Shown piece by piece: positions 1,781-24,812 of a stretch of 64,000 nucleotides of DNA. Source of the stretch: Paraprevotella clara YIT 11840 (GTDB lineage: Bacteria; Bacteroidota; Bacteroidia; Bacteroidales; Bacteroidaceae); assembly GCF_000233955.1 (NCBI RefSeq), contig NZ_JH376616.1, forward strand, positions 62,001-126,000. Direction: 5' to 3'. The notes under the pieces are model-generated. The model was not told the DNA's origin, did no database searches, and saw only the letters and a program-made list of their open reading frames with translations. A program made the translations under genes and the position numbers. Position 1 is the first letter of the stretch. Every line of letters starts with the position of its first letter.

Positions 1781-3031
1781 ATGAAAAAGGATATAAAAAT
1801 AGCCGTAGCCGGTACAGGTTACGTCGGGCTTAGTATCGCCACACTTTTAAGCCAACATCATCAAGTAACGGCCGTAGATGTCATCCCCGAAAAAGTGGAT
1901 TTAATCAACAGCCGGAAGTCACCCATTCAGGACGAATACATCGAGAAGTATCTGGCCGAAAAGGAACTGAATCTGACCGCCACACTCGACGGAGCCAAAG
2001 CCTACGCCGATGCGGACTTCGTGGTCATCGCCGCACCGACAAACTACGACCCGGTGAAGAACTACTTCGATACCAGCCACGTGGAGGAAGTCATCGAATT
2101 AGTGAAGAAAGTCAATCCCCATGCGATAATGGTCATCAAGAGCACCATTCCTGTGGGGTACACGGAAAGCGTACGCAAAAAGTTAGGCACGGAAAATGTC
2201 ATCTTCTCACCTGAGTTCCTGCGCGAGAGCAAAGCCCTGTACGACAACCTCTACCCCAGCCGTATCATCGTAGGCCGCCCCGAAGGCGATGCCCGGTTGG
2301 ACAAGGCCGCACACGACTTTGCAGCCCTCCTGCAGGAAGGGGCCATCAAAGAAAACATTGACACGCTGTTCATGGGACTGACCGAAGCCGAGGCCGTGAA
2401 ACTCTTTGCCAACACCTACCTGGCCTTGAGGGTCTCCTATTTCAATGAGTTGGACACGTACGCCGAGATGAAGGGTCTGGACACGAAAGCCATCATCGAA
2501 GGGGTAAGCCTCGACCCGCGCATCGGAAGACATTACAACAACCCCTCTTTCGGTTACGGTGGCTACTGCCTGCCCAAAGACACCAAGCAACTGTTGGCCA
2601 ACTATCAAGACGTCCCGGAAAACCTCATCGAGGCCATAGTGGAAAGCAACCGCACGCGCAAGGATTTCATTGCCGACCGCGTACTGCACACGGCCGGTTA
2701 CTACGACTATTACAACCGTGGCGACTTCAATCCTTCCGAGGAGCGGAAGTGTGTCATCGGCGTGTACCGCCTGACGATGAAATCGAACTCGGACAACTTC
2801 CGCCAATCGAGCATCCAAGGCGTGATGAAGCGCATCAAGGCCAAAGGTGCGGAGATCGTCATCTATGAACCCACGTTAGAAGATGGCAGCACGTTCTTCG
2901 GCAGCAAGGTGGTGAATGACTTGGATGCTTTCAAGAGCCAAAGCCATGCCATTATTGCCAACCGGTATGATGCTTGTCTGGATGATGTGGAAGAAAAGGT
3001 TTATACGAGGGATATTTTCAGGAGGGATTGA
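1781..3031 (+). CDS. ugd: Nucleotide-sugar dehydrogenase, UDP-glucose 6-dehydrogenase type
   Basis: 416 residues. Oxidises a UDP-hexose, most likely UDP-glucose to UDP-glucuronate, with two NAD+, providing an acidic sugar precursor for the polysaccharide cluster it heads. The N-terminal Rossmann motif GTGYVG is at about residues 11-16. The central domain follows, and the catalytic cysteine sits in GGYCLPKDT (Cys263), diagnostic of the UDPG/MGDP dehydrogenase family. Length fits the short bacterial Ugd class. Its base composition resembles the chromosome rather than the AT-rich genes behind it. UDP-GlcNAc or UDP-ManNAc dehydrogenase activity cannot be excluded from sequence, but the short form and motif spacing favour UDP-glucose. 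Confidence 0.88.
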
Positions 3032-3248: not shown

Positions 3249-4162
3249 ATGCCTAATATAAATCAACATTCCCCAAGCAAACATGCTTATCTGATAATTG
3301 CCCACACCAACTGGGGGCAACTAAATAAATTAGTTCGTGTTTTGGATGACTCACGGAACGATATATATATACATATCGACCTGAAACAATTAATATCTTT
3401 TAACAATTCAGGGGGGGGGTAAAAACGAAATATTCTAATGTGTATATCGTCAATAGTATTGATGTAAGATGGGGACATGTCAGTCAAATAAAGGCCGAAA
3501 TAGAACTGTTTGAAAAGTCCTCGCTAAAGCAATATAGTTATTACCATTTAATAAGCGGAATGGATTTGCCCTTGCATAATCAGAATTATATTCACAAATT
3601 CTTTGAAAGGAATCAAGGCTATGAGTTTATCGGTTTCGGAAATAAAAATTGGGATGTAAGAAATAGAGTGCATTGCCATAATTTTTGTATAAGTTTTCTG
3701 AGGTCTAACAATATGTTCATAAAATATATGTCTCGTTTTCTGAGAAAAATGTTCAATAGGCTGCAAGTATTATTCCATGTATATATAAATAATGCAGATT
3801 ATATTTACAGATATGGATGTAATTGGTGCAGTGTAACGCACGATTTTGTTACAGACCTTTTAAAAGGGAAAAAAGAGATATTTCAAACATACAAATATTC
3901 CTTTTGTCCAGACGAAATATACAAGCAAACTTTTGCCATAAACTCAAAATATAGAAATAAAATTTTTGATTATAATAACGAGTTTAAAGGTTGTATGAGA
4001 GAAATAGATTGGAATCGTGGGCGACCTTATATTTGGCGGACAGATGATTTTGATACATTGATATCATCAGAAAAACTATTTGCAAGAAAATTTGACGAAA
4101 GAGCAGATAGCACAATCATTGATAAAATAGTAAATAGAATAATGTTTGAACAACAGGCTTAA
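3249..4162 (+). CDS. Core-2/I-branching beta-1,6-GlcNAc transferase-like protein, frameshifted at a poly-G tract (OFF)
   Basis: An ATG at 3249 opens a frame with AYLIIAHTNWGQLNKLVRVLDD and IYIHID, the usual start of bacterial 'Branch' family (PF02485) glycosyltransferases. It stops after 57 codons, immediately behind nine G residues (3411-3419). The rest of the protein (VYIVNSIDVRWG, YYHLISGMDLPLH, NWCSVTHDFV, CPDEIYKQT) continues to 4162 in another frame. Ten or seven G would fuse the parts into a continuous protein of 304 or 303 residues. The enzyme would add a branching GlcNAc or similar sugar in the cytoplasm. A sequencing error in the homopolymer is the alternative, but the poly-G position and the second such gene at 8051 favour phase variation. 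Confidence 0.8.
3411..3419 (+). repeat. Poly-G tract (G9), putative phase-variation switch
   Basis: Nine consecutive G inside the coding region of the branching transferase. At nine, translation hits TAA directly after the tract; at ten (or seven) the frame joins the downstream portion. Long G runs are otherwise absent from the surrounding AT-rich DNA. Confidence 0.8.
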
Positions 4163-4285: not shown

Positions 4286-5833
4286 ATGTCTTCTCAAACA
4301 TCTGACAATAAACGCATAGCAAAAAATACACTGCTGCTATATTTCAGAATGCTCTTTATGATGGCGGTTAACCTTTACGCCTCACGTGTTATTCTGAACA
4401 CGTTGGGCATCACGGATTACGGCATCAACAATGTGGTGGGGGGAGTGATAACCATGCTAGGATTCCTTACGGGGTCTTTAGGGGGAGCTTCTTCACGTTA
4501 TATCACCTACGATTTAGGCAAAGGCGACATGACGGTTATGAAGAAAACGTTCGGCAACATCCTTAGCATCCATTTTATTCTTGCGGTTATAGTTCTGTTG
4601 GTAGGTGAAACGTTGGGACTCTGGTTCATGTCCACTCAGCTACAAATTCCTCCAGAACGTGAGGCCGCTGCCATGTGGGTATACCAGTTCTCCATTTTTT
4701 CCTCTGTACTGGCTGTGGTCAGCGTGCCATACAACGCCACCATCATAGCCCATGAAAAGATGTCGGCCTTTGCCTATATCTCCATTGCCGATGCGGTACT
4801 GAAGCTACTGATTGTCTATCTTTTGGTGCTGATTCCCTATGACAAGCTGATTGTTTATGCAATTCTATTTTTTTGTGTTCAGGCCTTTGACCGCATAGTG
4901 TATGGCATTTATTGTTCGCGTCATTTTAAAGAGACGCGGACTCGACCCAAGTACGATGGAAAGCAGTTCAAGGAAATCTTTGTTTTTGCGGGATGGACGA
5001 TGAACGGAAATCTCGCTGTGATAGGTTATACGCAGGGACTGAATATTTTATTGAATATTTTTTTCGGTCCTACGGTAAACGCAGCCCGCGGCATTGCTGT
5101 GCAGGTACAGAGCGTATGCCAACAATTTTGCGGCAATTTCCAGATGGCCCTCAATCCACAACTGACAAAAAGTTATGCCCAAGGAAATTTGGAAAACATG
5201 CACCGGCTGTTGGTAAGAAGCTCCAAATTCTCGTTTTATATTCTGCTTCTTGTCGTTCTTCCATTAATGTTCGAGGCAGAATTAGTCTTAAAAGTTTGGT
5301 TGGGGATTGTGCCAGAACATACGGTGAATTTCCTTCGTCTAATGTTGGTTGTAGGGTTACTATATACGTTGTCAAATCCTATTAACGTATCAGTCCATGC
5401 CACAGGGCAGCTCAAGAAGTTTCAGACAATAGAAGGTACAATGTTGCTGCTGATTGTACCGATAGCTTACTTTTTATTAAAACACTTTAACGTACTGCCA
5501 GAATGTGTCTTCGTAGTACATATTATAGTAGAGCTATTAACTCAGTATGCCCGTATTCGTATTGTATTACCAATGATAGGCATGCAGCTGATAACTTACT
5601 TCAAACAAGTCATTATTCCTGTGAGCATGACCGCAGTATTAACTCCTATCATTCCTTTTGTCGTGTTTACTCATATGTCAATCTGTTGGTATCAGTTCTT
5701 TGTAATCTGCGTTGTTAATGTTCTGTGCATTTCCTTTGTGATTTACACATTAGGGTGTACTACTTCTGAACGTAAATTTTTAGCTGAAAAATTTGCTTCC
5801 AGTGTTCGGAAAATAACGAACACTTACAAATAA
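4286..5833 (+). CDS. Polysaccharide flippase (Wzx-like, MATE/MOP superfamily)
   Basis: 515 residues, very hydrophobic throughout with about 12 predicted membrane spans. It matches the Bacteroidales 'lipopolysaccharide biosynthesis protein' flippases: NTLLLYFRMLFMMAVNLYASRVIL near the start and LGITDYGINNVVGG just after. It would move lipid-linked repeat units across the inner membrane for periplasmic polymerisation by the Wzy-like protein encoded at 8051. The first 123 bases upstream (4163-4285) carry no recognisable gene. A 6-G run in the coding region (4438-4443) does not disturb the frame. Confidence 0.85.
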   Translation: MSSQTSDNKRIAKNTLLLYFRMLFMMAVNLYASRVILNTLGITDYGINNVVGGVITMLGFLTGSLGGASSRYITYDLGKGDMTVMKKTFGNILSIHFILAVIVLLVGETLGLWFMSTQLQIPPEREAAAMWVYQFSIFSSVLAVVSVPYNATIIAHEKMSAFAYISIADAVLKLLIVYLLVLIPYDKLIVYAILFFCVQAFDRIVYGIYCSRHFKETRTRPKYDGKQFKEIFVFAGWTMNGNLAVIGYTQGLNILLNIFFGPTVNAARGIAVQVQSVCQQFCGNFQMALNPQLTKSYAQGNLENMHRLLVRSSKFSFYILLLVVLPLMFEAELVLKVWLGIVPEHTVNFLRLMLVVGLLYTLSNPINVSVHATGQLKKFQTIEGTMLLLIVPIAYFLLKHFNVLPECVFVVHIIVELLTQYARIRIVLPMIGMQLITYFKQVIIPVSMTAVLTPIIPFVVFTHMSICWYQFFVICVVNVLCISFVIYTLGCTTSERKFLAEKFASSVRKITNTYK

Positions 5834-5904: not shown

Positions 5905-7092
5905 ATGAATGTCTTAATCATCACTTTATATACTCCGATGCCAGAGAATTATAAAGGCATTTCAGGTCTTATTTTTCATTTGCTGGAAAAGCGCCCTAAA
6001 AATATAGCTATAACCTTGTATAGTTATAATATTAATAAAATAAGTGAAGAGGTCAGGAAAAAAGTCGCTAAAGATCTGAACGTGGAGATACGTTTATTAA
6101 AAATACCACAATGGATATTATTTTGTTGTCGAAATGCTTTATTGAAACTTATCAATCTGTTATTACCATTGGATCTTCTTTGCTATTTGCCATTACCGAA
6201 TATGATAAAGAAGGAAATTGAATGTGGAAAATATGATACGGTATGGCTTTATCCGTTCTATTTCTTTCGCTGGATAAAAATCTTTCCGTCCCAACATTTT
6301 GTTCTTACCGGATGTGACAGTGGTGCATTATTTGCAAAACGTTGTGATAAAGATGCCTTTTTCAATAGAAGCATTAAACATATGTTATCCCTAAACTTAA
6401 GAATGAGGAAAGCGCGGAAGATAGAAAAGGAATTTAATTTGCCTAATGCAAGAATACATTTTGTTGGAAAAACAGATTTAGAATATTATACTTCGCACAA
6501 TAAGGTAAACAATGGCTTTTATACACCTCATCCACATTACAGAATTGTCAATAAATCAATAAAATTTAGTTCCAATTTATTGAAGGTGTTATGGGCAGGC
6601 AGCAATGACCTGTATATGCGGACAAAGGGACGTGAACTATTAGACTCGTTAGTAAAACATGCTCATTTCCTTTGTGATAAAATTGAAATCACCTTTTTAG
6701 GAAAGGGATGGAGTGAATATCACCGAGTTCTGACTGATTACGGGTATCAAAGTCAATGTATTCATTGGGTAGATAACTATGTTAATGAGATTATAAAATA
6801 TGATATACAGTTAGCTCCAATCTCAGTAGGAACCGGAACAAAAGGCAAGGTTTTAGATGCAATGGGAAACGGGTTATTATGCATCGGGACAGCCTTTGCT
6901 CTGGAAAATATAAGTTCAAATAATGTAGGGTGTATTGAATATGAAAATGCCGATACGGTTTGTGAGATACTTCAAGACATATATCAGAATCGAGAAAAAT
7001 ATGAAAATATAGCCCGGGTTGGAAAAAGTATTGTATTAAAAGAACATGCTCCTCAGTCCTGTTCTATAGAATTCTTTTCACATTTTAAATAG
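5905..7092 (+). CDS. Glycosyltransferase, GT4/GT-B-like
   Basis: 395 residues, AT-rich like its neighbours. The opening MNVLIITLYTPMPENYKG and the C-terminal half (VLWAGSNDLYMRTKGRELLD, GTGTKGKVLDAMGNGLLCIGT) resemble GT-B fold transferases. In that second half the sugar-nucleotide site normally contains an E/G-rich loop and a 'deciding' helix such as KVLDAMGNG. Donor and acceptor cannot be inferred. It lies 71 bases behind the flippase in the same direction, so it is probably co-transcribed and builds one linkage of the repeat unit. Sequence similarity to characterised families is weak by eye. Confidence 0.65.
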   Translation: MNVLIITLYTPMPENYKGISGLIFHLLEKRPKNIAITLYSYNINKISEEVRKKVAKDLNVEIRLLKIPQWILFCCRNALLKLINLLLPLDLLCYLPLPNMIKKEIECGKYDTVWLYPFYFFRWIKIFPSQHFVLTGCDSGALFAKRCDKDAFFNRSIKHMLSLNLRMRKARKIEKEFNLPNARIHFVGKTDLEYYTSHNKVNNGFYTPHPHYRIVNKSIKFSSNLLKVLWAGSNDLYMRTKGRELLDSLVKHAHFLCDKIEITFLGKGWSEYHRVLTDYGYQSQCIHWVDNYVNEIIKYDIQLAPISVGTGTKGKVLDAMGNGLLCIGTAFALENISSNNVGCIEYENADTVCEILQDIYQNREKYENIARVGKSIVLKEHAPQSCSIEFFSHFK

Positions 7093-7159: not shown

Positions 7160-7960
7160 ATGAAAATTGTAAATTTTAAAGGTGGATTAGGAAATCAAAT
7201 ATTTTTCTATTTGATGTGTCTATATCTCAAAGAGTCATGCCCTAAAAATAAAATTTATGGAAATTATAATTCAAAGTTATTATGTGATCATAATGGATTG
7301 GAAATTCAAAATATTTTTGATATAGAACTTCCTCCTGAAACAATATGGAGCAAACTTGTGACCATATTTGCACGAGGAGCAAGTCGATTTATTAAAGGTG
7401 TAAAAGCTGATGATAACAGATTTCGCCTAAATGCTATTTATTATGATGGATGGTGGCAAGATAAGAAATATTTCTTGAATCATATCGCATATTTAAAATT
7501 TAGAGAAGTGAAATTAGACAAAACGAATGATAAGTTATTAAGAACTATTCAAACAACGAATTCTGTCTCATTGCATATCCGAAGAGGAGACTATTTACTA
7601 CCTAAATATAAAAAACTATATGGAGATATTTGCACTCTTCAATACTATCAATCTGCCATTCACATAATAGAAGATAAAATGGATGAACCATATTATTTTA
7701 TTTTTTCTAATGATATAAAATGGGTTAAAAAGAACATTCATCTAAAGCATGCTGTTTTTGTAGAAAATAATACAGGCTCCAATAGCTATATAGATATGTT
7801 CTTAATGTCTTGGTGTAAAGCCAATATAATAGCAAATAGTAGTTTTTCTTATTGGGGAGCTAAATTAAATGTACATCAACATCAAATTGTTGTATATCCT
7901 AAAAAATGGAATCAGATTCAGACTCCGGATTTATTTCCAAACGAATGGTATGGAATATAA
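7160..7960 (+). CDS. Alpha-1,2-fucosyltransferase family protein (GT11)
   Basis: 266 residues. The GT11 signature is clear: GGLGNQ at residues 9-14, HIRRGDY around 139-145 (the GDP-fucose binding HxRRxD motif) and NSSFSYWGA around 226-234. The enzyme transfers fucose, or a related 6-deoxysugar, from its GDP form in alpha-1,2 linkage to a galactose-type acceptor. Fucosylated surface glycans are a known trait of gut Bacteroidales and can mimic host sugars. No GDP-fucose synthesis genes occur in this window, so the donor must come from elsewhere. Slightly shorter than typical members of about 290 residues. Confidence 0.9.
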   Translation: MKIVNFKGGLGNQIFFYLMCLYLKESCPKNKIYGNYNSKLLCDHNGLEIQNIFDIELPPETIWSKLVTIFARGASRFIKGVKADDNRFRLNAIYYDGWWQDKKYFLNHIAYLKFREVKLDKTNDKLLRTIQTTNSVSLHIRRGDYLLPKYKKLYGDICTLQYYQSAIHIIEDKMDEPYYFIFSNDIKWVKKNIHLKHAVFVENNTGSNSYIDMFLMSWCKANIIANSSFSYWGAKLNVHQHQIVVYPKKWNQIQTPDLFPNEWYGI

Positions 7961-8050: not shown

Positions 8051-9362
8051 ATGTATTTATATTGGTTAATATTCTGTGCTGTTTCCTATTGTGCATTTAG
8101 AAATTGGAAAACGACAACTATTGTTTGGATGCCTTTGCAGTTATTGTTCAATGAATGTGTTTGCTTGAGATACACATCACCCGCACTAACATTGGTATTG
8201 GCTGTTGACTTTTTGCTCTTATTGGTTTATTGCTTTCAATGGAAAAAATTGTACTTCAATTATAGAAAGTTCTTTTTTAAAAATATATTGATAGCCTACT
8301 TAGCTTCTTATTTGTTATCAATGATTTTTTCAATAGTATCCATTGAGGAAGTATTAACTGGCACTATTAAATATTTCATCCAAAATTTCATTATACTTTA
8401 CTTATTTCAAAAGGCACTCACAGGCTTTGATGAAATTAAGCTATTTATCAAAGCAACTTTTGTAGTAGCTGTTTTAATTATATCACTTGGGCTGTTTGAA
8501 GCAATAGTTGGAGACAATCCTATCTTGGACTATGTGTTTATGAACGCCCCTATTGATGCAATAGAGGGAAAAATGTATTACATTCCGCCATTTATGCAAA
8601 TGTCAGGGGAATTGCAACAACGTTTTGGAATGGTCCGTGCATTTTCCTTTTTTAACATTCATATTGCATTCGGATGTGCTTGCGTCCTGTTATTGTTCCT
8701 TTATGCTTATCTGTATAAACATAAAATCATACTATTCAAAAAGTTTTATTTGGCGATAGGCATTGGCTTATTTTTGACAGGTGTTTTTCTCTGTAATTCC
8801 AAAACTCCAATGGTCGGCTTGTTATTCTTTACTATTGGAATATTGTCTTTCAGAGATATAAGCCGTAGCTATGTAGTCTTCTTCATAGTGACTGTAGCAT
8901 TTGTCCTATTGATATATTTTCCAGATTACTTGAATAATATTCAGGCTTTATTCAATAGCAATGTTGCCGAAGAGGGGGGGGGGAAGCAATGTTGCTATGC
9001 GCACCAGACAATTTGAGGTCGGCCTCAGTTTGTTTGAAAGAAGTCCCTTGGTAGGAAATGGCATAGGATCAATCGCAGTCTTTATGAAAGGTGGTAATAA
9101 TGCCGATTTATTGGGAGCCGAAAGTTCATGGTTGAAAATACTCCCGGAAAGGGGCTTGGTTGGTGTTATCGTCTATCTCTATCTTTATTTTACCATGTAT
9201 CGGAAACTGTTGCCATATATGAGCAAAAGACCCCTTATTTGTTTTCTAGGGGGGATATTGGCGATGGAAACTGCCACGGGATTTTTGAATATGGTTATTT
9301 ATGGCAGTATCGTGATTGTGCTCTATATGATAGGAAATCTCCACAAGACGGCTAAATTATGA
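8051..9362 (+). CDS. O-antigen/EPS polymerase-ligase (Wzy-like), frameshifted at a poly-G tract (OFF)
   Basis: A multi-spanning membrane protein interrupted by a frameshift. The first frame runs 8051-9016 (321 residues). It changes reading phase at ten G (8974-8983) and ends 33 bases later. The second frame (to 9362) carries RTRQFEVGLSLFERSPLVGNGIGS and the last membrane spans, the conserved C-terminal loop of the O-antigen ligase/polymerase (Wzy_C) family. Nine G, or twelve, would give one continuous protein; at nine it is 436 residues. Wzy joins flipped repeat units in the periplasm, so switching it would change chain length or capsule presence. A homopolymer sequencing error is the alternative. 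Confidence 0.8.
8974..8983 (+). repeat. Poly-G tract (G10), putative phase-variation switch
   Basis: Ten consecutive G in the Wzy-like gene. The upstream frame needs nine (or twelve) to enter the downstream frame. Together with the G9 tract at 3411 it makes two single-nucleotide repeat switches in one polysaccharide cluster. Confidence 0.8.
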
Positions 9363-9366
9363 TTTT

Positions 9367-10395
9367 ATGAATAACGAACCTTATAAAGTTTCTATCTGCA
9401 TACCCATTTATGGCGTAGAGCAATATATCGCGCGTTGTGCCGAAAGCTTGTTTGAACAAACTTATCACAACATAGAATATATATTTGTCAATGACTGTAC
9501 CCAAGATAAGAGTGTTGACATTTTGATGCAAGTATTGTCGAAGTATCAGGTACGTAAGCCTCAAGTAAAAATAATCAATCACAAATACAATCGCGGGTTG
9601 GCTGCCGCCCGTAATACCGGGATAGATGCGGTTACAAGTGATTATGTGATGCATGTGGACAGTGATGATTGGATAGAAAGAAATGCAGTTGAATTACTTG
9701 TAAAGAAGCAAATAGAGACAGGAGCAGATTACGTGATGGCAAATCATATTCAGAATTTGGGAACTTACAGGATATTTTGGGAACGTCCCCATATTGTCAA
9801 TCCCCGGCAGTTATCACTTTCGTTAATTAAGCGTTATATGCCGATTAACGTCTACGGACAGCTTTTCCATATCTCGCTTTATAGGAATCATGAAATACGG
9901 GTAGCAGAAGGAGTGAATATGGGAGAAGACTTTCAACAAGTACCTCGCTTGGCTTATTATGCCACCCAAATTGCCATAGTGGATGAATTTATATACCATA
10001 ATGAAAACACGAATAAAGCAAGTTATACCCGTTCTTCATTTAATATTAACAAATGGGAACAGGTATGGAGTTCCACTCAAATCATAATTGATTTTTGCCA
10101 AGAAAAAGGCGAAAATTTTGTACAAGCAGCTAACTTTTTACGTTTCAAAACAGCGGCAAACAGCTTGATTACACTGACAAAAGGAAAGTTATATCCTATT
10201 GAATATAAACGAATGTCCGACATCGTCAATGCCCGACGCGATTTATGGAAATCCATGCCGGTAACGCAGCAAGCATGTTTTTACCTAAGTAACATTTACA
10301 TGGTGGCGGTTTATGTAAAGGCAGCTCGAATATTAAGATTTGCACTCAATAAAATGTATAAAAAGATAAGACATCACGATATCGTAAAACCTTAA
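9367..10395 (+). CDS. Glycosyltransferase family 2 (GT-A)
   Basis: 342 residues. Starts with YKVSICIPIYGVEQYIARCAE, has FVNDCTQDKS after the first strand pair and the metal-binding HVDSDDW near residues 97-102, the classic GT2 layout. An inverting transferase using a UDP- or GDP-sugar, active on the cytoplasmic face. The start codon is 4 bases behind the Wzy-like stop, suggesting tight co-transcription. The C-terminal third is rich in aromatic and basic residues, as in membrane-associated GT2 enzymes. Sugar specificity unknown. Confidence 0.88.
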   Translation: MNNEPYKVSICIPIYGVEQYIARCAESLFEQTYHNIEYIFVNDCTQDKSVDILMQVLSKYQVRKPQVKIINHKYNRGLAAARNTGIDAVTSDYVMHVDSDDWIERNAVELLVKKQIETGADYVMANHIQNLGTYRIFWERPHIVNPRQLSLSLIKRYMPINVYGQLFHISLYRNHEIRVAEGVNMGEDFQQVPRLAYYATQIAIVDEFIYHNENTNKASYTRSSFNINKWEQVWSSTQIIIDFCQEKGENFVQAANFLRFKTAANSLITLTKGKLYPIEYKRMSDIVNARRDLWKSMPVTQQACFYLSNIYMVAVYVKAARILRFALNKMYKKIRHHDIVKP

Positions 10396-10406
10396 TGTTA
10401 TAACTT

Positions 10407-11456
10407 ATGTCAAAACAACATTCGACAATAGCTTTTATTGTTCCATATTTCGGACGCTTCAATAACTACTTCCAACTGTGGCTGAATTCATGTGCGGCCA
10501 ATCCGACAATTGATTGGTTCATATTTACAGATGATAAAAGAGATTATGATTATCCTCCCAATGTCCATGTAACTTACACGACATTGAACAAAATCAAGCA
10601 ACGGGCAGAAAAGGCATTAAACTGTCAAGTCTGTATGGATAAGCCTTATAAGCTATGCGATTTTAAACCTTTCTACGGTGTGATGTTTGCCGAAGAATTA
10701 CAAGGATATGACTTTTGGGGATATTGCGATGTAGATTTGATCTGGGGAGACATACGTCACTTTGTGACTGAAGATTTACTTACGAATAATTACAAACTAT
10801 TCAGCCACGGACATTGTACGATATTGAGAAACATGGAGGTAGTAAATCGTTTCTACTTATTGGAAGCGAAAGGAGTCATCCCTTGGCAAAAAGTTGTATC
10901 CTCGCCTTATTCCTTCTTATATGATGAGTTTGATCAAACCAACGGCATATTTGAGAAACACTTTCCTGACAAGTATCATTGGGAAACAGCTGCATTTGAC
11001 GCAAATTATAATACACGTTCTTTAAGACCGACAAGGACTACCGTACAATTGATGAAAGCAATGAACACTGATTATGTGTTTCATTGGACTGAAGGACGGC
11101 TTACCGGATTATGCATTGCAACCGACAACACTATACAAGGACAAGATTTCATGTATCTGCATTTACAGAAAAGGAAAATAGATTGCGATTTTTCACTGTC
11201 TGCTACAATCACAGATTGTATAGTTCTCCATGACAGAATCATACGAAGCATGCCAGTCACTCCCCAGAAATTCAAGCAATTATTGCCAAATAAATCAATC
11301 TTACCGTATCGGTTCGAAGAACACGTGCTTCATGTTATAAACATCATCTTTGACAATTATAGCCAGAAACCATATTTCCGTGGAACTGTGAGTTATTGGT
11401 TTGATAAACTGTTCGGGCGAACTAACAGGTACGATTATCGTTACAAGAAGTCATAA
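10407..11456 (+). CDS. DUF6625-type putative glycosyltransferase
   Basis: 349 residues. IAFIVPYFGRFNNYFQLWL at the start, IDWFIFTDD, YKLCDFKPFYG and FWGYCDVDLIWGDI are hallmarks of the DUF6625 family, common in Bacteroidales capsule and EPS clusters. The CDVD motif resembles a DxD metal-binding site of a GT-A fold. It follows the GT2 gene by 11 bases. The precise transfer reaction is not known; placement in the cluster supports a glycosyltransferase role. Confidence 0.75.
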   Translation: MSKQHSTIAFIVPYFGRFNNYFQLWLNSCAANPTIDWFIFTDDKRDYDYPPNVHVTYTTLNKIKQRAEKALNCQVCMDKPYKLCDFKPFYGVMFAEELQGYDFWGYCDVDLIWGDIRHFVTEDLLTNNYKLFSHGHCTILRNMEVVNRFYLLEAKGVIPWQKVVSSPYSFLYDEFDQTNGIFEKHFPDKYHWETAAFDANYNTRSLRPTRTTVQLMKAMNTDYVFHWTEGRLTGLCIATDNTIQGQDFMYLHLQKRKIDCDFSLSATITDCIVLHDRIIRSMPVTPQKFKQLLPNKSILPYRFEEHVLHVINIIFDNYSQKPYFRGTVSYWFDKLFGRTNRYDYRYKKS

Positions 11457-11634
11457 ACAAAAATAGGTGTAAGGCATCCAACCTCTTTTTAATCACACTT
11501 ATTGCAAACTCTTAATAGTAGAATATGGATAATAATGATAGGGCAATCATTATCGCTTAGATAGACAAAGGCAAATCTGCCGATTGTGGGAAGACGATGA
11601 AGAACTATCTCCGGACATAGAAAAACGCATTGGC

Positions 11635-12729
11635 ATGACAAAAACATTCATTCCGAAGTCTGTCAGCAGGCACATCTTGATGGCTGGCAACTATTACAAA
11701 CATCATCATCCAGGCGGAATTTCGGCAGTAGTACAATATTGGTCACGATATATTGAGGATTTGCAGTATTATCCCACATACAAATTAGGCAATGTTGCAA
11801 CAAGAGCCTGTTGGTTCATATCCTCATACCTGAGAATGGCATTAAGAATGCTAACAGACCGAAACATAAAAATCGTACACTTGCACACTGCCGCAGACGG
11901 TTCATTTTGGCGAAAAGTCCAACTGATACGCTTAGCCAAACGGATGAGACGGAAGGTTATCCTGCATGTACATGCTTCAAGGTTTAAAGATTTTTATGAA
12001 GAATCGAACCGCAAGCCATGGATATTGGAAAACTTGCAACGAGTAGACTTACTGATAGTATTGTCTGCATCATGGAAAGAATGGTTTACAAACATAGGCA
12101 TGTCTGAAGATAAAATCGTCATTCTGCACAATATTACCGAATATCCGCAAAAAAAAGGTGATAAAGTACCTCTTGAAAAAGGAAGACCTGTTCGTTTCCT
12201 TTTTTTAGGCGAAATCGGGGAACGAAAAGGCGTATTTGACATATTGGGCGGCATATCGCAACACAAAGAGGAATTGAATGGAAAGATAAAATTACGAATC
12301 GGTGGAAACAAACATGAAACCGAACTGCAAAAGCAGATAACCGACAATGGGTTGGAAAATATAGTAAATTTTGAAGGTTGGGTCAGTGGAGATAAAAAAA
12401 TTGAACTGTTGAATTGGGCGGATGTATTTATACTGCCTTCACACAATGAAGGTTTACCGATTTCTATTTTGGAAGCTATGAGTTATGGAATGCCAGTCAT
12501 ATCAACTCCCGTTGGTGGAATTCCTGAGGTCGTAAATAAACAAAACGGTATTCTAGTACAACCTGGTAACGAAGAAGCAATCGCACAATCTATAATCCAT
12601 TTTGTAGAACACCCTTCAAAGATTGCCATAATGGGCAACCATAGCCAAGAAGTAGTAAAAACTTATCTTCCTGACTATGTGATGAGCCAATTGAAAGAAA
12701 TATATGAAAAATTACTTCTGAAAAAATAA
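11635..12729 (+). CDS. Glycosyltransferase family 4
   Basis: 364 residues from the ATG at 11635, which precedes SRHILMAGNYYKHHHPGGIS, the expected first strand and glycine loop; the open frame extends upstream to a TTG at 11584 but that part looks non-coding. The C-terminal domain holds VRFLFLGEIGERKGVFDIL and the E-x7-E motif in NEGLPISILEAMSYG, followed by PVISTPVGGIPEVV. This is a retaining GT-B enzyme. The 178-base gap before it has no gene. Likely adds one sugar of the repeat unit; donor unknown. Confidence 0.88.
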   Translation: MTKTFIPKSVSRHILMAGNYYKHHHPGGISAVVQYWSRYIEDLQYYPTYKLGNVATRACWFISSYLRMALRMLTDRNIKIVHLHTAADGSFWRKVQLIRLAKRMRRKVILHVHASRFKDFYEESNRKPWILENLQRVDLLIVLSASWKEWFTNIGMSEDKIVILHNITEYPQKKGDKVPLEKGRPVRFLFLGEIGERKGVFDILGGISQHKEELNGKIKLRIGGNKHETELQKQITDNGLENIVNFEGWVSGDKKIELLNWADVFILPSHNEGLPISILEAMSYGMPVISTPVGGIPEVVNKQNGILVQPGNEEAIAQSIIHFVEHPSKIAIMGNHSQEVVKTYLPDYVMSQLKEIYEKLLLKK

Positions 12730-12746
12730 AAACTATTATAGTTACT

Positions 12747-13199
12747 ATGAAGAAAATCCTCGCCGTCGCCTCCATCGGAGGCCATTGGGTACAACTCCTC
12801 CGCATCGCTCACCCGTTAGAAGAACGTTATGAAGTGGTGTACATGTCAACCCACCCTAAATGTAAATCCATGGTCGGCAATTGCCGTTTTCATACCATGA
12901 CGGATTTCAGCCGTTGGAATGCTTGGAAAATGTTACCGGCTTCCTTCAATATTCTGGGGATTCTGCTCAAAGAACGACCGGCTGCCATCGTCACAACAGG
13001 TGCGGCTCCGGGACTGCTTACCATTATTTTAGGCAGAATGACCGGAATCAAGACCATCTGGGTAGACTCTGTAGCCAATGTACAAACCATGAGCGCTTGT
13101 GGAAAATTAGCACGCAAATTCGCAACCCACGTGTACACCCAGTGGCCGGGTCTTGCTACTGCACAAGTGCATTATGCCGGAAACATCTTTGGCGATTAA
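12747..13199 (+). CDS. Alg14/PssD-like glycosyltransferase subunit
   Basis: 150 residues. KKILAVASIGGHWVQLLRI at the start is the GGH motif of the Alg14/EpsE/PssD family, a membrane-anchored partner that recruits the catalytic Alg13-like subunit encoded next (13261). In eukaryotes Alg14/Alg13 add GlcNAc to a lipid-linked sugar. In bacteria PssD/PssE-type pairs transfer glucuronic acid or GlcNAc, which would suit the UDP-glucuronate from the ugd gene at the head of the cluster. Base composition returns to the chromosomal level here. Confidence 0.85.
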   Translation: MKKILAVASIGGHWVQLLRIAHPLEERYEVVYMSTHPKCKSMVGNCRFHTMTDFSRWNAWKMLPASFNILGILLKERPAAIVTTGAAPGLLTIILGRMTGIKTIWVDSVANVQTMSACGKLARKFATHVYTQWPGLATAQVHYAGNIFGD

Positions 13200-13260: not shown

Positions 13261-13728
13261 ATGATATTTTGCACTATCGGTACTCAGGCCCCATTCGACC
13301 GTTTCGTGAAAATCATTGATGAAGTGGCCGCGCATTTGGATGAGGAAATCATCGCGCAAGTGTACAAAAGTGAATATGTGGCTCAAAACATCCGTACCGT
13401 AGAATTTCTACCGCCCGATGAGTTTAACAAGTTATTCAGCAAGGCACGCCTTATTGTGGCCCATGCAGGTATGGGTACTATTATTTCCGCCATGCGCCAA
13501 CACAAGCCTATTATTATCTTTCCACGCATAGCCGCATGGGGTGAACACCGCAACGAGCATCAGTTGGCCACAGCTCAGAAGATGAAAGAACTCGGCTATG
13601 TGTACGTGGCAACCGACGCAAAAGAACTAAAAGAGTTGTTGACAACCCGGAATCTAAAACCCTTGCATGATTTGGGAGATATTGCAAGCAAAAGCCTGAT
13701 AAATGAATTATGCAAGGTCATAGGATAG
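13261..13728 (+). CDS. Alg13/PssE-like glycosyltransferase (GT28 C-terminal domain)
   Basis: 155 residues. MIFCTIGTQAPFDRFV, then LIVAHAGMGTIISAMRQHKPIIIFPR and EHRNEHQLATAQKM form the UDP-sugar binding half of GT28 enzymes (HAGxGT and NEHQ motifs). Catalytic partner of the Alg14-like protein directly upstream; the two are separated by 61 bases. Probably the last gene of the polysaccharide cluster, since a helicase gene follows one base later. Confidence 0.87.
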   Translation: MIFCTIGTQAPFDRFVKIIDEVAAHLDEEIIAQVYKSEYVAQNIRTVEFLPPDEFNKLFSKARLIVAHAGMGTIISAMRQHKPIIIFPRIAAWGEHRNEHQLATAQKMKELGYVYVATDAKELKELLTTRNLKPLHDLGDIASKSLINELCKVIG

Positions 13729-21752: not shown

Positions 21753-24700
21753 CTAACGGACAATGAGTTTCTGTGTCCTTGCGCAGCCTTCCAGCTTCAT
21801 GCTTATCAGGTAAATGCCTTGTCCATACAATCCCGTATCCGTCACGCTGCCCGGCATCACGTTACCCTGCCACAAAACACGTCCGTCCAAATCATAAACA
21901 CGCACTTCCACTTCTTCGCTTCGTGCCGAAATCACACAAATCCGCCCGTTTTGCATTGTAGCCGACAATTCCAAGTCGTGCGTCGGTACATCTGCGATTG
22001 CGTTAGGTTTATCAGAAAGCTGTACCGTGATTTCATCCGGACAATCCGTTCCGATAATGAGCGTCCCATAGTACCTTTCTTCCTCGTTGACCTCCACTTC
22101 CAAATCATAAGTACCGAGAGGCAACGCATAGGTATTCAGATAATAATAGTAATTCAGCGTCAACGTCTTACCCTCCTTAGACAAATACATAGGAAGAATA
22201 CCGGACTCCGCCACACTATTGTCGGGCATGACAAGCCAAAGCCGGAACACCCTATATTGGCTCAAATCCACTTCCACTACCTTACCTTCATCGTCTACCT
22301 CAAACGTACCCTCCAAAGGCCATAAGCGGTGGTAATTCTCACCGACAGACACTAAACCGAACTCATAGTAATGTTTACCTTTCCGAAACATCACACTTTC
22401 TTGGTTTCTGAGTGTCATCATGCTATCCACCCGAATCTCAATGAATTTAACCTGTTCTGGTTGGTTCACCATTTCGAATGTCACTGCACGGAATTCCTCC
22501 GGATTGAATTGGATATCAACTTTCACGGCCTTATCAGCTATTTCAAAATAGAGCGTATCCCTGAAACAATATTGGTAGCCCACATAACGGGCCGTGTACT
22601 TTCCGGGAGGCAAAAGGAGGGCGCCATTTATACCGTCTTGTTGTTCTATTTTTTGCCCGTCCTTGAACACGGACACCCACCCATCAAGCAATTCCTCTTG
22701 GTTTACAGTAAAGTCCACAGCACGGTAAGCACTGAAATCCATCGTCTCGGCCACGTCGTTCTCTTTGAGTTCCACACTGAAATCAACCGAAGCTTCGTGG
22801 CCATCGAGGTCACGGACATGAACCGTACCGCAGTAATCCCCCTGCGGCATCATCATGTGACCTGCGTATTCCATCGTGGAGGCACTTTTGTCCAAAGCCA
22901 TGGGGAAGTCTTCATACACACCATTTATCCACACCGTAGGCAGGGACATGTCCCATTCATCATTGCCTTTTACCCTTAGGGAGAGGCGTCTGTACCCCTC
23001 GAAAGAGACAGTTTCCTGCAACATCCCCTCATCCACCGAAACGCTTTCCGATATAGGCAAGTAGACACTATCACCATGTGCCCAACTTCCTCCCACCTCA
23101 TAACGACAGCCCCCCGGTTCCAAAAGGAATAGCGTGCAACATCCGTCCGCATCGGTCTGGGAGGATGCTTCGTAGTCGTAGTCCGCTTGCCGCAGTGTTA
23201 CGGGAAAGCCATTGGCCGGGCGACCGTTCTCATCCTTCACGAAAAACTTGATTCCATAATAATCGTCTTCATTAAAAGCATATACGATTGGGGCTTCATC
23301 CTCCTCCAAGTTAAACGATTGTTCTTTGCCAAAAGGCAAAGCCTGCTGCCCATCTGCCGTTTGCAGTCCAACGACCCAATGGTGCTCACCCGACGGCATG
23401 AGCACGTCATGAACCGCCTCCTTGTCCAACGATACCTCCACTCCGTCTATTTCGGCTTCTCCACGGAACAAATAACCGTCGGGAGCAGTCAACTTGGCCG
23501 TAAGGTATGTGCCGAAATCATATTCAAAATTCACGTCTTTTCCGTCCAAAACAATATTGTCTTCCTGTACGCCGAGGATGTCCTTCGTTGTATTACTAAA
23601 TAGAAGGGACATGCTTGCATTGGTATATTCCTTTTCTATAAGAACGCCATATACAATATCATCGCCATCTTCTGTGCCACTTCTTGGAAATGCATCCCAT
23701 CCCCCGCCATTGTAGTGTAATCGTGAGGAACGCGACAATATACGTTTTGCATTAGAAGTACCTATTTCCTTTGTGTTTTTCAGCCTGACTGTCAGCAGTG
23801 TCGTACCGACCAGATTCACATCTTCTACAACATCTTCATCCAAAACCTGAATACTCTTTGTCTCCGGAGGATAAAACGGCTTCTCATAATCGGGATCATA
23901 GTCATAATCACCGGGCATGACGTAAATTTCGCAAAAACCGCTTGCATCAGTGGCAAGGTCAACATCTAAACGAGGATTGTCTGCCGAACGCAAATTTACG
24001 GACAAATTCTCCATGGCCGACCCGTCACGATCCGTAAACAGGAATCTCAGCGCACGGCTTTGGCTCAAATCAATATCCACGGTCACGTCTTTATTGACGA
24101 CCTGATAGGCTACGCTATAGGGAAAGTAACCCGGCGCCATGAACTCCATGGTGTAATATCCCGGAGTACGGTAAACGGCAATGAACTTCTCAGCCGCAAT
24201 TCCGTCAATTGTAGCATGCTCCACCGCAGCTCCACCGTGCCCCTTGATATTCCCTAAAGACACTTTGTATTTTCCGTTTTTCGGGGCGATAGGCACAATG
24301 CCTTTCTCTTCTTCCAAGTTGACCTCTCCACTACAATCACCGAATACCTTGGTGTTAAACTCCCAGGATATGGCAGGAGCATCCCACCAAAAAGAAAGGA
24401 TTCCATCATCTCCCATTGTTTTATACGTAGCGCCAGAGCTGCCCTTTGTAGAGACTTTCAAATCACTGCCTTTTACCTGCGCGACTTCCTCATCTGAAAG
24501 CCCCACCAGTTGGAACGTCACATAATAACCGTCCAAACTCACATTAACGGCAGAGGATATACCATCCCAAGAAAAACGCACTGTCTCATAATTATAGTCT
24601 TTATAATACCGGAACGAATAGGTACCCGAACTTCCCAACCCTTTTATTACAAAATCACCATTGGCATCAGTATCAAAGCTTTCGTTGTCGAACTGCACCG

Positions 24701-24812
24701 ACAACCCACTTACCACAGCTCCCCGTTGGTCGGTCACATGAACCGTAACATCCCGTCCGAAAGTAGCCAAAGAGACCAGTAGCAGCATACATATCAAATA
24801 AAATTGCTTCAT
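21753..24812 (-). CDS. Large secreted protein with repeated prealbumin-like (Cna-B/carboxypeptidase-regulatory) domains and T9SS sorting domain
   Basis: 1019 residues. Signal peptide of about 19 residues. Then a series of beta-sandwich modules recognisable by recurring D-A-D/N-G turns: DTDANGDFVIKGL, DASGFCEIYVMPGDY, TDADGCCTLFLLEPGG. The last ~75 residues (EVRVYDLDGRVLWQGNV ... YLISMKLEG ... QKLIVR) form a type A T9SS C-terminal sorting domain, which directs export across the outer membrane and often surface attachment. No enzymatic motif was seen; an adhesin or structural surface protein is a plausible guess. Transcribed alone with an approximately 300-base leader that contains a nested-hairpin element (24943-25039). 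Confidence 0.75.
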   Translation of the reverse strand: MKQFYLICMLLLVSLATFGRDVTVHVTDQRGAVVSGLSVQFDNESFDTDANGDFVIKGLGSSGTYSFRYYKDYNYETVRFSWDGISSAVNVSLDGYYVTFQLVGLSDEEVAQVKGSDLKVSTKGSSGATYKTMGDDGILSFWWDAPAISWEFNTKVFGDCSGEVNLEEEKGIVPIAPKNGKYKVSLGNIKGHGGAAVEHATIDGIAAEKFIAVYRTPGYYTMEFMAPGYFPYSVAYQVVNKDVTVDIDLSQSRALRFLFTDRDGSAMENLSVNLRSADNPRLDVDLATDASGFCEIYVMPGDYDYDPDYEKPFYPPETKSIQVLDEDVVEDVNLVGTTLLTVRLKNTKEIGTSNAKRILSRSSRLHYNGGGWDAFPRSGTEDGDDIVYGVLIEKEYTNASMSLLFSNTTKDILGVQEDNIVLDGKDVNFEYDFGTYLTAKLTAPDGYLFRGEAEIDGVEVSLDKEAVHDVLMPSGEHHWVVGLQTADGQQALPFGKEQSFNLEEDEAPIVYAFNEDDYYGIKFFVKDENGRPANGFPVTLRQADYDYEASSQTDADGCCTLFLLEPGGCRYEVGGSWAHGDSVYLPISESVSVDEGMLQETVSFEGYRRLSLRVKGNDEWDMSLPTVWINGVYEDFPMALDKSASTMEYAGHMMMPQGDYCGTVHVRDLDGHEASVDFSVELKENDVAETMDFSAYRAVDFTVNQEELLDGWVSVFKDGQKIEQQDGINGALLLPPGKYTARYVGYQYCFRDTLYFEIADKAVKVDIQFNPEEFRAVTFEMVNQPEQVKFIEIRVDSMMTLRNQESVMFRKGKHYYEFGLVSVGENYHRLWPLEGTFEVDDEGKVVEVDLSQYRVFRLWLVMPDNSVAESGILPMYLSKEGKTLTLNYYYYLNTYALPLGTYDLEVEVNEEERYYGTLIIGTDCPDEITVQLSDKPNAIADVPTHDLELSATMQNGRICVISARSEEVEVRVYDLDGRVLWQGNVMPGSVTDTGLYGQGIYLISMKLEGCARTQKLIVR

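What the first reader, a model, noticed from the sequence alone, without database searches (positions are those of the whole stretch)
8051..9362. Second poly-G switch, in the Wzy-like polymerase gene
Ten G interrupt the polymerase; nine would restore 436 residues. Loss of Wzy would reduce the glycan to single repeat units, a much stronger effect than losing a side branch. Two independent tracts in one cluster allow up to four surface states, and both are OFF in this assembly.
Basis: partly seen in the sequence, partly recalled or inferred. Interest (0 to 1): 0.8.

Follow-up and report, generated by a model that had tools for sequence, protein, structure and literature searches.

The report
Poly-G switch in capsule polymerase gene
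In a gut bacterium, a run of ten Gs splits the gene that probably joins sugar units into long surface chains into two reading frames, most likely a slippery on/off switch, and related gut bacteria carry many similar runs in surface genes.

Summary
Ten G (8974-8983) separate two open frames of one gene: a 307-aa and a 125-aa piece align to successive parts of intact Wzy_C proteins of the genus. Nine G at 3411-3419 split a Branch-family glycosyltransferase in the same cluster. Two runs of nine or more arise in 1 of 2000 shuffles of the cluster.

Best reading: a slippage-prone contingency tract, out of frame in this assembly. Slippage, reversibility and phenotype are not shown: no second isolate or close orthologue was found, and a miscounted homopolymer cannot be excluded. 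Other tracts in the genus (Paraprevotella) put acyltransferase, HsdS, propeller-sensor, acetyltransferase and glycosyltransferase genes out of frame; another genus has them in SusC-like receptors.

Unexpectedly, runs of eight or more G are often followed by TAAA (48 against 11 controls in the genus; 92 against 3 in another genus) and, at promoters, preceded by GTTAA. The wzy tract lacks this signature. Verdict: a likely new member of a known kind, within a wider, less expected poly-G system.

The parts
8974..8983 (+). G10 tract inside the Wzy-like gene
   Evidence: Direct run-length count
8051..9016 (+). N-terminal frame of the Wzy-like gene (321 aa as read; 307 aa before the tract)
   Evidence: ORF; N piece aligns to residues 18-250 of intact homologue L021 and 85-299 of L022; a Wzy_C match at window 8765-8965, profile 4-74, below cut-off
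8961..9362 (+). C-terminal frame of the Wzy-like gene (125 aa after the tract)
   Evidence: Wzy_C profile 81-149, E 3.7e-6, 27.2 bits against cut-off 31.7; aligns to 290-410 of L021 and 304-390 of L022
8957..8967 (+). upstream copy of an 11-bp direct repeat flanking the tract
   Evidence: the repeat finder, AGCAATGTTGC, spacing 28
8985..8995 (+). downstream copy of the direct repeat
3411..3419 (+). G9 tract inside the Branch-family glycosyltransferase gene, followed at once by TAAAA
3249..3422 (+). N-terminal frame of the Branch-family gene, stopping directly after the tract
   Evidence: no Pfam match for the 54 aa
3440..4162 (+). C-terminal frame of the Branch-family gene (240 aa; this frame is open from 3404)
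   Evidence: PF02485 Branch, E 3.9e-13; frame limits
3390..3423 (+). TTAA(N6)TTAAC(N6)G9TAAA composite signature at tract 1
1781..3031 (+). UDP-glucose 6-dehydrogenase
   Evidence: NF011631 E 4.7e-173, below its cut-off; TIGR03026 over cut-off
4286..5833 (+). Wzx-like flippase
   Evidence: NF041503 E 5.3e-6, below its cut-off
5905..7092 (+). glycosyltransferase group 1
   Evidence: PF13692 E 5.3e-5, just below cut-off
7160..7960 (+). glycosyltransferase family 11
   Evidence: PF01531 E 1.2e-25
9367..10395 (+). glycosyltransferase family 2
   Evidence: PF00535 E 2.8e-33
10407..11456 (+). DUF6625 protein
   Evidence: PF20330 E 5.1e-85
11584..12729 (+). glycosyltransferase group 1
   Evidence: PF00534 E 2.3e-34
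12747..13199 (+). PssD-like glycosyltransferase subunit
   Evidence: NF041549 E 2e-21, below cut-off
13261..13728 (+). PssE-like glycosyltransferase subunit
   Evidence: NF041548 E 1.4e-30, below cut-off

Best explanation
The gene is a Wzy-type repeat-unit polymerase of a surface polysaccharide cluster in which the place of a Gly-Gly loop has become a run of ten G. When the run gains or loses G during replication the last 125 residues fall in or out of frame, so single cells switch between long-chain polysaccharide and unpolymerised or altered glycan. Shown: the tract, the frame change at the tract, one ancestral gene across it, the cluster, and that some other poly-G tracts of the genus differ in length or frame between orthologues. 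Inferred: slippage at this tract, reversibility, loss of polymerase activity, and the surface effect.
For: Pieces searched apart align to successive stretches of two intact homologues; in L022 four residues lie between the two alignments, in L021 the N alignment ends 24 residues earlier than in the query and 39 residues lie between. The homologues L021, L022 and L190 pass the Wzy_C cut-off and have GG at the junction in 3 of 3 sequences read; of these, L021 and L022 were scanned and have no G or C run of six or more. The own-genome Wzy_C search finds this gene as two rows in two frames on either side of the tract region; one of the two is the only row of 13 with a stop inside. A second tract splits another gene of the same cluster. 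Genus pattern: of 32 gene-spanning G9+ tracts, 13 are out of frame by a mechanical rule, 8 of them with pieces in named families: Branch, Wzy_C (below cut-off), Acyl_transf_3, Methylase_S, Reg_prop, Hexapep twice, GT2. Orthologue pair: propeller sensor G9 in frame (L001) against G11 out of frame (L054), net one base. Acetyltransferase tract G10 (L008) against G11 (L057) in similar flanks.
Against: No length variation was seen for this tract: no reads, no second isolate, and no homologue closer than 23-38% identity. The C piece alone is below the Pfam cut-off. The wzy tract lacks the TAAA/GTTAA signature of many other tracts. The sequencing method is not known; contig C22 starts inside a poly-G run and C48 has an N gap beside one, as expected if such runs assemble badly. 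In the other genomes some long G runs lie at contig ends (L037, L153, L157, L147, L150), where poly-G read artefacts are possible (recalled). Several orthologous coding tracts keep frame (L039/L045, L158/L187). Five of the 13 out-of-frame tracts have no named family or look like a junction of two genes.
Confidence: 0.7

Rival explanations
1. The run is real but its length was miscounted in the assembly; the gene is in frame in most cells, and the 'off' state is an artefact. This does not exclude that the tract is slippery.
For: Homopolymers of nine or ten are error-prone in several sequencing methods (recalled). Contig C22 begins in a poly-G run and C48 has an N gap beside one. Both tracts of the cluster are out of frame, whereas the other five gene-spanning G9+ tracts of this genome (L001, L003, L004, L005, and L007 in the C sense) are in frame.
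Against: Those same five tracts show that the assembly can report in-frame lengths. The existence of two long runs in an AT-rich cluster is not explained by miscounting.
Confidence: 0.2
2. The gene is a pseudogene: an irreversible frameshift in a polymerase no longer needed, with other Wzy genes doing the work.
For: Six other Wzy_C regions pass the cut-off in this genome, and no close orthologue was found to show conservation.
Against: Both halves are otherwise open, with no further stop in the 125-aa C frame, and align with open relatives. The frame change falls at the longest G run of the window, and a second cluster gene has the same kind of lesion.
Confidence: 0.12
3. Programmed ribosomal frameshifting or transcription slippage at the G run makes full-length protein from the assembled sequence.
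For: A long homopolymer at an overlap of two frames is a layout used by such systems (recalled). The frames overlap across the tract from 8934 to 9016.
Against: The three homologues read do not keep the two-frame layout. One sister pair shows an in-frame and an out-of-frame length, which favours mutation over recoding. No stimulatory structure was searched for.
Confidence: 0.06

Closest known systems
Poly-G contingency genes of Campylobacter jejuni (for example cgtB)
   Same: Frameshift by slippage in a G tract of 8-9 inside a surface-glycan gene, with mixed lengths in a population (PMC6437147, passages).
   Different: That is a terminal galactosyltransferase of LOS in Campylobacter, shown by experiment; here a putative polymerase in Bacteroidota, not tested.
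G-tract switches of Bifidobacterium breve pilus genes
   Same: Intragenic G tract in a gut commensal, with length plasticity and in vivo enrichment of a length that appears to allow pilus synthesis (PMC9187656, abstract and section list).
   Different: Gram-positive (recalled), pilus genes rather than polysaccharide.
Homopolymer slippage in an Acinetobacter baumannii capsule locus
   Same: Slippage mutants in a side-chain glycosyltransferase and in wzx that escape a phage (PMC10249906, passages).
   Different: Poly-A or poly-T tracts; flippase rather than polymerase; selected mutants.
Bacteroides fragilis capsule phase variation
   Same: Wzx/Wzy-type surface polysaccharide loci in the same order of bacteria; an acetyltransferase frameshift in a short C run, for which slippage was suggested (PMC3090145, passages).
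   Different: The mechanism described for its capsule loci is promoter inversion; the reported C run is of four bases.

Membership tests
Simple-sequence-repeat phase-variable (contingency) gene | Long mononucleotide tract inside the ORF | tested here: met
   G10 at 8974-8983
Simple-sequence-repeat phase-variable (contingency) gene | Tract lies at the frame change of one otherwise open gene | tested here: met
   Pieces align to successive parts of intact homologues; Wzy_C found in two frames
Simple-sequence-repeat phase-variable (contingency) gene | Length differs between cells or isolates | not testable with these tools
   No reads and no second isolate; nearest homologues 23-38% identical
Simple-sequence-repeat phase-variable (contingency) gene | Reversible change of phenotype | not testable with these tools
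   Needs experiment
Simple-sequence-repeat phase-variable (contingency) gene | Same organism group carries further tracts in surface or restriction genes, with length or frame differing between orthologues | tested here: met
   Length or frame differs in L001/L054 (sensor) and L008/L057 (acetyltransferase); out-of-frame tracts in HsdS L050, acyltransferase L044, GT2 L177. L039/L045 and L158/L187 keep frame
Wzy_C (PF04932) polymerase/ligase | Profile match over cut-off | tested here: inconclusive
   C piece 27.2 bits against 31.7; two frame-separated rows of 23.4 and 20.4 bits; three homologues over cut-off
Wzy_C (PF04932) polymerase/ligase | Many membrane segments | tested here: inconclusive
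   Crude hydropathy gives six segments in the N piece and one in the C piece; no dedicated predictor was run
Wzy polymerase rather than WaaL-type ligase | Repeat-unit polymerase activity, or placement with Wzx and glycosyltransferases | tested here: inconclusive
   Cluster placement fits; TIGR04370 only E 0.0018, below cut-off; activity not tested
Bacteroides-type invertible capsule promoter | Inverted repeats flanking a promoter, with an invertase | not tested
   Repeats were searched only at 8900-9060, where one direct and no inverted repeat was found

The most novel reading that the evidence does not exclude
Bacteroidaceae carry a large poly-G switching system with its own sequence grammar: GTTAA(N5-6)TTAAC, a short spacer, eight or more G, then TAA(A). 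It is used at promoters of secreted proteins, where tract length would set the spacing between an activator site and the promoter, and inside genes for capsule enzymes, restriction specificity, sensors and SusC-like receptors, where it sets the reading frame. The Wzy tract is one target drawn into the same bet-hedging programme through a Gly-Gly loop.
Probability: 0.35. Interest if true: 0.8.

Novelty: new member of a known kind. Interest (0 to 1): 0.55.

Why it matters
A switch in the polymerase would change chain length of a whole surface polysaccharide, so phages, antibodies and neighbours would meet two kinds of cell from one genome. A 2025 review names as a major question the apparent restriction of genomes with many phase-variable loci to pathogens, and adds that database bias may explain it (PMC11868660, passage); where the Bacteroides passages shown there name a mechanism, it is inversion or recombination. 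A commensal genus and family with many candidate slippage tracts in surface genes makes that question directly testable from existing metagenomes.

Tried and rejected
Looked for close orthologues of the N piece: 18 genus genomes gave two distant hits besides itself, 393 order genomes none other at E 1e-20, and a genome-contig scan none. The second genome-contig scan used UGDH to name the genus.

Considered that G8TAAA is simply composition: rejected, because the reversed pattern is about four times rarer in the genus (48 against 11) and, in the own genome, the excess starts only at eight G (13 sites with six or more, 9 of them with eight or more; control 5, of which 1). Considered that the intergenic tracts are hypervariable promoters: undecided, since 22 of 30 are exactly eight G and some orthologous promoters keep their length while others differ; a fixed regulator site remains possible. 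Sigma-70 and terminator scans were at shuffle level and are not used.

No structure was predicted: the joined protein was not made, and one part of a membrane protein alone would say little.

An earlier count said 12 of 12 downstream ORFs look secreted; the right count is 12 of 17.

Full report
What is there. The window holds exactly two G runs of seven or more, G9 at 3411-3419 and G10 at 8974-8983, and no C run of seven or more. Both lie in one cluster of a 4.23 Mb, 165-contig genome. The cluster runs UGDH, Branch-family glycosyltransferase (tract 1), Wzx-like flippase, GT group 1, GT11, Wzy-like gene (tract 2), GT2, DUF6625, GT group 1, PssD, PssE. A NusG-family gene (PF02357, 24.3 bits, cut-off 22.2) lies about 260 bases before the window start; capsule loci of Bacteroides also begin with NusG-like UpxY genes (recalled). 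Several of these family matches are below the curated cut-offs, as marked in the parts list.

Which organism. UGDH of the window is 92-93% identical to that of two uncultured Paraprevotella MAGs.

One gene, two frames. The 307 residues before the tract and the 125 after it were searched separately. Against the intact homologue of genome G017 (L021, 418 aa) residues 18-274 and 1-123 align to 18-250 and 290-410; against that of G012 (L022, 434 aa) residues 84-307 and 1-89 align to 85-299 and 304-390; identities are 25-38%. Both homologues and a third in G013 (L190) pass the Wzy_C cut-off. The N piece alone has no Pfam match and only a weak TIGR04370 match (E 0.0018); the C piece matches Wzy_C 81-149 at 27.2 bits against a cut-off of 31.7. 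A Wzy_C search of the own genome gives 13 rows, six over the cut-off. This gene appears as two rows in different frames, profile 4-74 at window 8765-8965 and 59-149 at 8925-9179, both below the cut-off; the second is the only row of 13 with a stop inside. In the three homologues the place of the tract reads GG shortly before an M-R, so the tract sits where a glycine loop is expected. An 11-bp direct repeat, AGCAATGTTGC, flanks the tract at a spacing of 28, as if a short duplication had preceded it (inference).

More than chance? Of 100 dinucleotide shuffles of the whole window 5 give as many G9 matches, so at window level the runs are only mildly unusual. In the cluster, where GC is 36.6%, 35 of 2000 shuffles give one run of nine or more G or C and 1 of 2000 gives two; 29 of 5000 codon shuffles reach a G run of nine or more. 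That each run coincides with the frame change of a gene is additional to this.

The genus. The own genome has 21 G runs of eight or more, 12 of nine or more. From the genus listing of G9 runs, whose rows were cut off in G013, and from the TAAA sites I fetched loci holding 77 distinct G9+ tracts: 43 non-coding-like, 2 left out for N gaps, 32 gene-spanning. Some of the 43 lie at contig ends and could be read artefacts. Of the 32, 13 change frame by a mechanical longest-frame rule. Eight of the 13 have a piece in a named family: the two of the window, Acyl_transf_3 (L044), Methylase_S with one specificity domain on each side (L050), a Reg_prop protein (L054), Hexapep (L057, L178) and GT2 (L177). 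The pieces tested of L033, L160, L179 and L185 had no match, and L184 has GT2 before and GNAT after the tract, so it looks like a junction of two genes. In-frame tracts include acyltransferases (L005, L173) and Reg_prop proteins (L001, L004, L158), but also a BNR_4 protein and an outer-membrane efflux protein (L003, L145), so not every tract is in a glycan or regulatory gene. In G013 a G10 tract lies near the 3' end of a GT2 gene directly downstream of a Wzy_C gene. In the UGDH-Wzx locus of G011 a G14 tract lies between an open frame without a Pfam match and a Hexapep frame; the Wzx there is 41% identical to that of the window.

Do lengths vary? DNA similarity gave 16 pairs of tracts, one of them within a single locus and so not informative. 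The Reg_prop pair L001/L054 differs by a net one base (G9 in frame, G11 out of frame), and the acetyltransferase pair L008/L057, seen, has G10 against G11 in similar flanks. Against this, the acyltransferase pair L039/L045 (G8, G9) and the Reg_prop pair L158/L187 (G11, G9) keep frame. Promoter-type pairs go both ways: L009/L053, L164/L186 and L171/L174 keep their length; L026/L143, L038/L176 and L164/L183 differ in the number of G, some of them over short alignments. For the wzy tract there is no orthologue to compare.

A sequence grammar. GGGGGGGGTAAA occurs 48 times in 18 genus genomes against 11 for the reversed pattern. In the own genome, sites with six or more G before TAAA number 13, of which 9 have eight or more; the reversed control is 5, of which 1, so the excess begins at eight. 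Of 48 sites read, 30 are intergenic-like (22 of them exactly eight G) and 18 coding-like (7 exactly eight). GTTAA lies within 25 bases upstream in 17 of 29 intergenic sites (shuffles: mean 1.6, maximum 6 in 500) and in 4 of 17 coding sites (mean 0.65, maximum 5), so the coding case is weak; one site beside an N gap and one too near a locus end were left out of the shuffles. Some intergenic sites lie about 14-23 bases before a TAnnTTTG-like element, by eye, others (L009, L053) show none; that promoter consensus is named in PMC3090145 (passage). Of 17 downstream ORFs that I picked, 12 start with a signal-like hydrophobic stretch by eye and 5 do not; families found over their cut-offs include a T9SS tail, a ricin-type lectin and an outer-membrane barrel, and several have none. 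Tract 1 of the window carries a TTAA...TTAAC-G9-TAAA form of the signature; the wzy tract does not.

The family. In 142 other genomes of the family the pattern occurs 278 times against 60 controls, in 77 of 142 genomes; in eight genomes of genus g213 it is 92 against 3. In two of those genomes (58 sites; 30 loci read) at least 13 sites lie, by eye, near the start of TonB-dependent, SusC-like receptor genes, mostly between the signal or N-terminal region and the CarboxypepD_reg-like domain; Pfam found that domain and the Plug domain in 5 of 5 tested, and the SusC subfamily itself was not tested. Others lie in an AraC-type regulator and an AMP-binding protein.

How it most likely works. Replication slippage in the G run moves the last 125 residues of the polymerase in or out of frame. 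With the assembled length the protein ends shortly after the tract, losing part of the Wzy_C domain. Cells then export single or altered units, if the gene is the cluster's polymerase and no other one substitutes. Everything after the frame change is inference.

Literature. Ten searches of an open-access library listed, in the rows shown (titles and abstract starts), no report of poly-G tracts in Paraprevotella, in Bacteroidaceae capsule polymerases or in SusC genes; papers outside that library and rows not listed were not seen. Nearest precedents are in Closest known systems; what I saw of each is stated there. PMC2831843 (abstract and section list) reports coding homopolymers, poly-A and poly-T, as over-represented and calls such tracts a general regulatory mechanism. 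Passages of PMC6249986 treat capsule phase variation in general and name slippage in siaD of Neisseria.

Noticed in passing
G000:C8:6887, C39:358061, C48:159445 and the other intergenic-like sites in loci L008-L059: Promoter-type composite GTTAA(N5-6)TTAA(C), spacer, G8 or more, TAAA; 22 of 30 sites are exactly eight G, and 12 of 17 downstream ORFs picked look secreted.
   Followed up: partly
L193-L217 (two genomes of genus g213): Poly-G tracts of 8-10 near the start of at least 13 SusC-like receptor genes, in frame in some and out of frame in others by a mechanical rule.
   Followed up: partly
L050:2006-2015: G10 splits a type I restriction specificity gene between its two recognition domains, out of frame in this assembly.
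   Followed up: partly
L001, L004, L054, L158, L187: Poly-G tracts of 9-11 inside propeller-type (Reg_prop) sensor-like genes (L187 by similarity to L158); L054 is out of frame.
   Followed up: partly
L006:1-9 (start of contig C22) and L010:2919-3010: A contig starts in a G9 run at the 5' end of an acyltransferase gene, and a scaffold gap lies between G16 and G8 runs.
   Followed up: no
L116:169: A GTTAAC...TTAAC-G9-TAAA site in an uncultured Bacteroides MAG.
   Followed up: no
window 21753-24812, minus strand: A 1019-aa secreted-looking protein whose end resembles a type IX secretion sorting tail, by eye.
   Followed up: no
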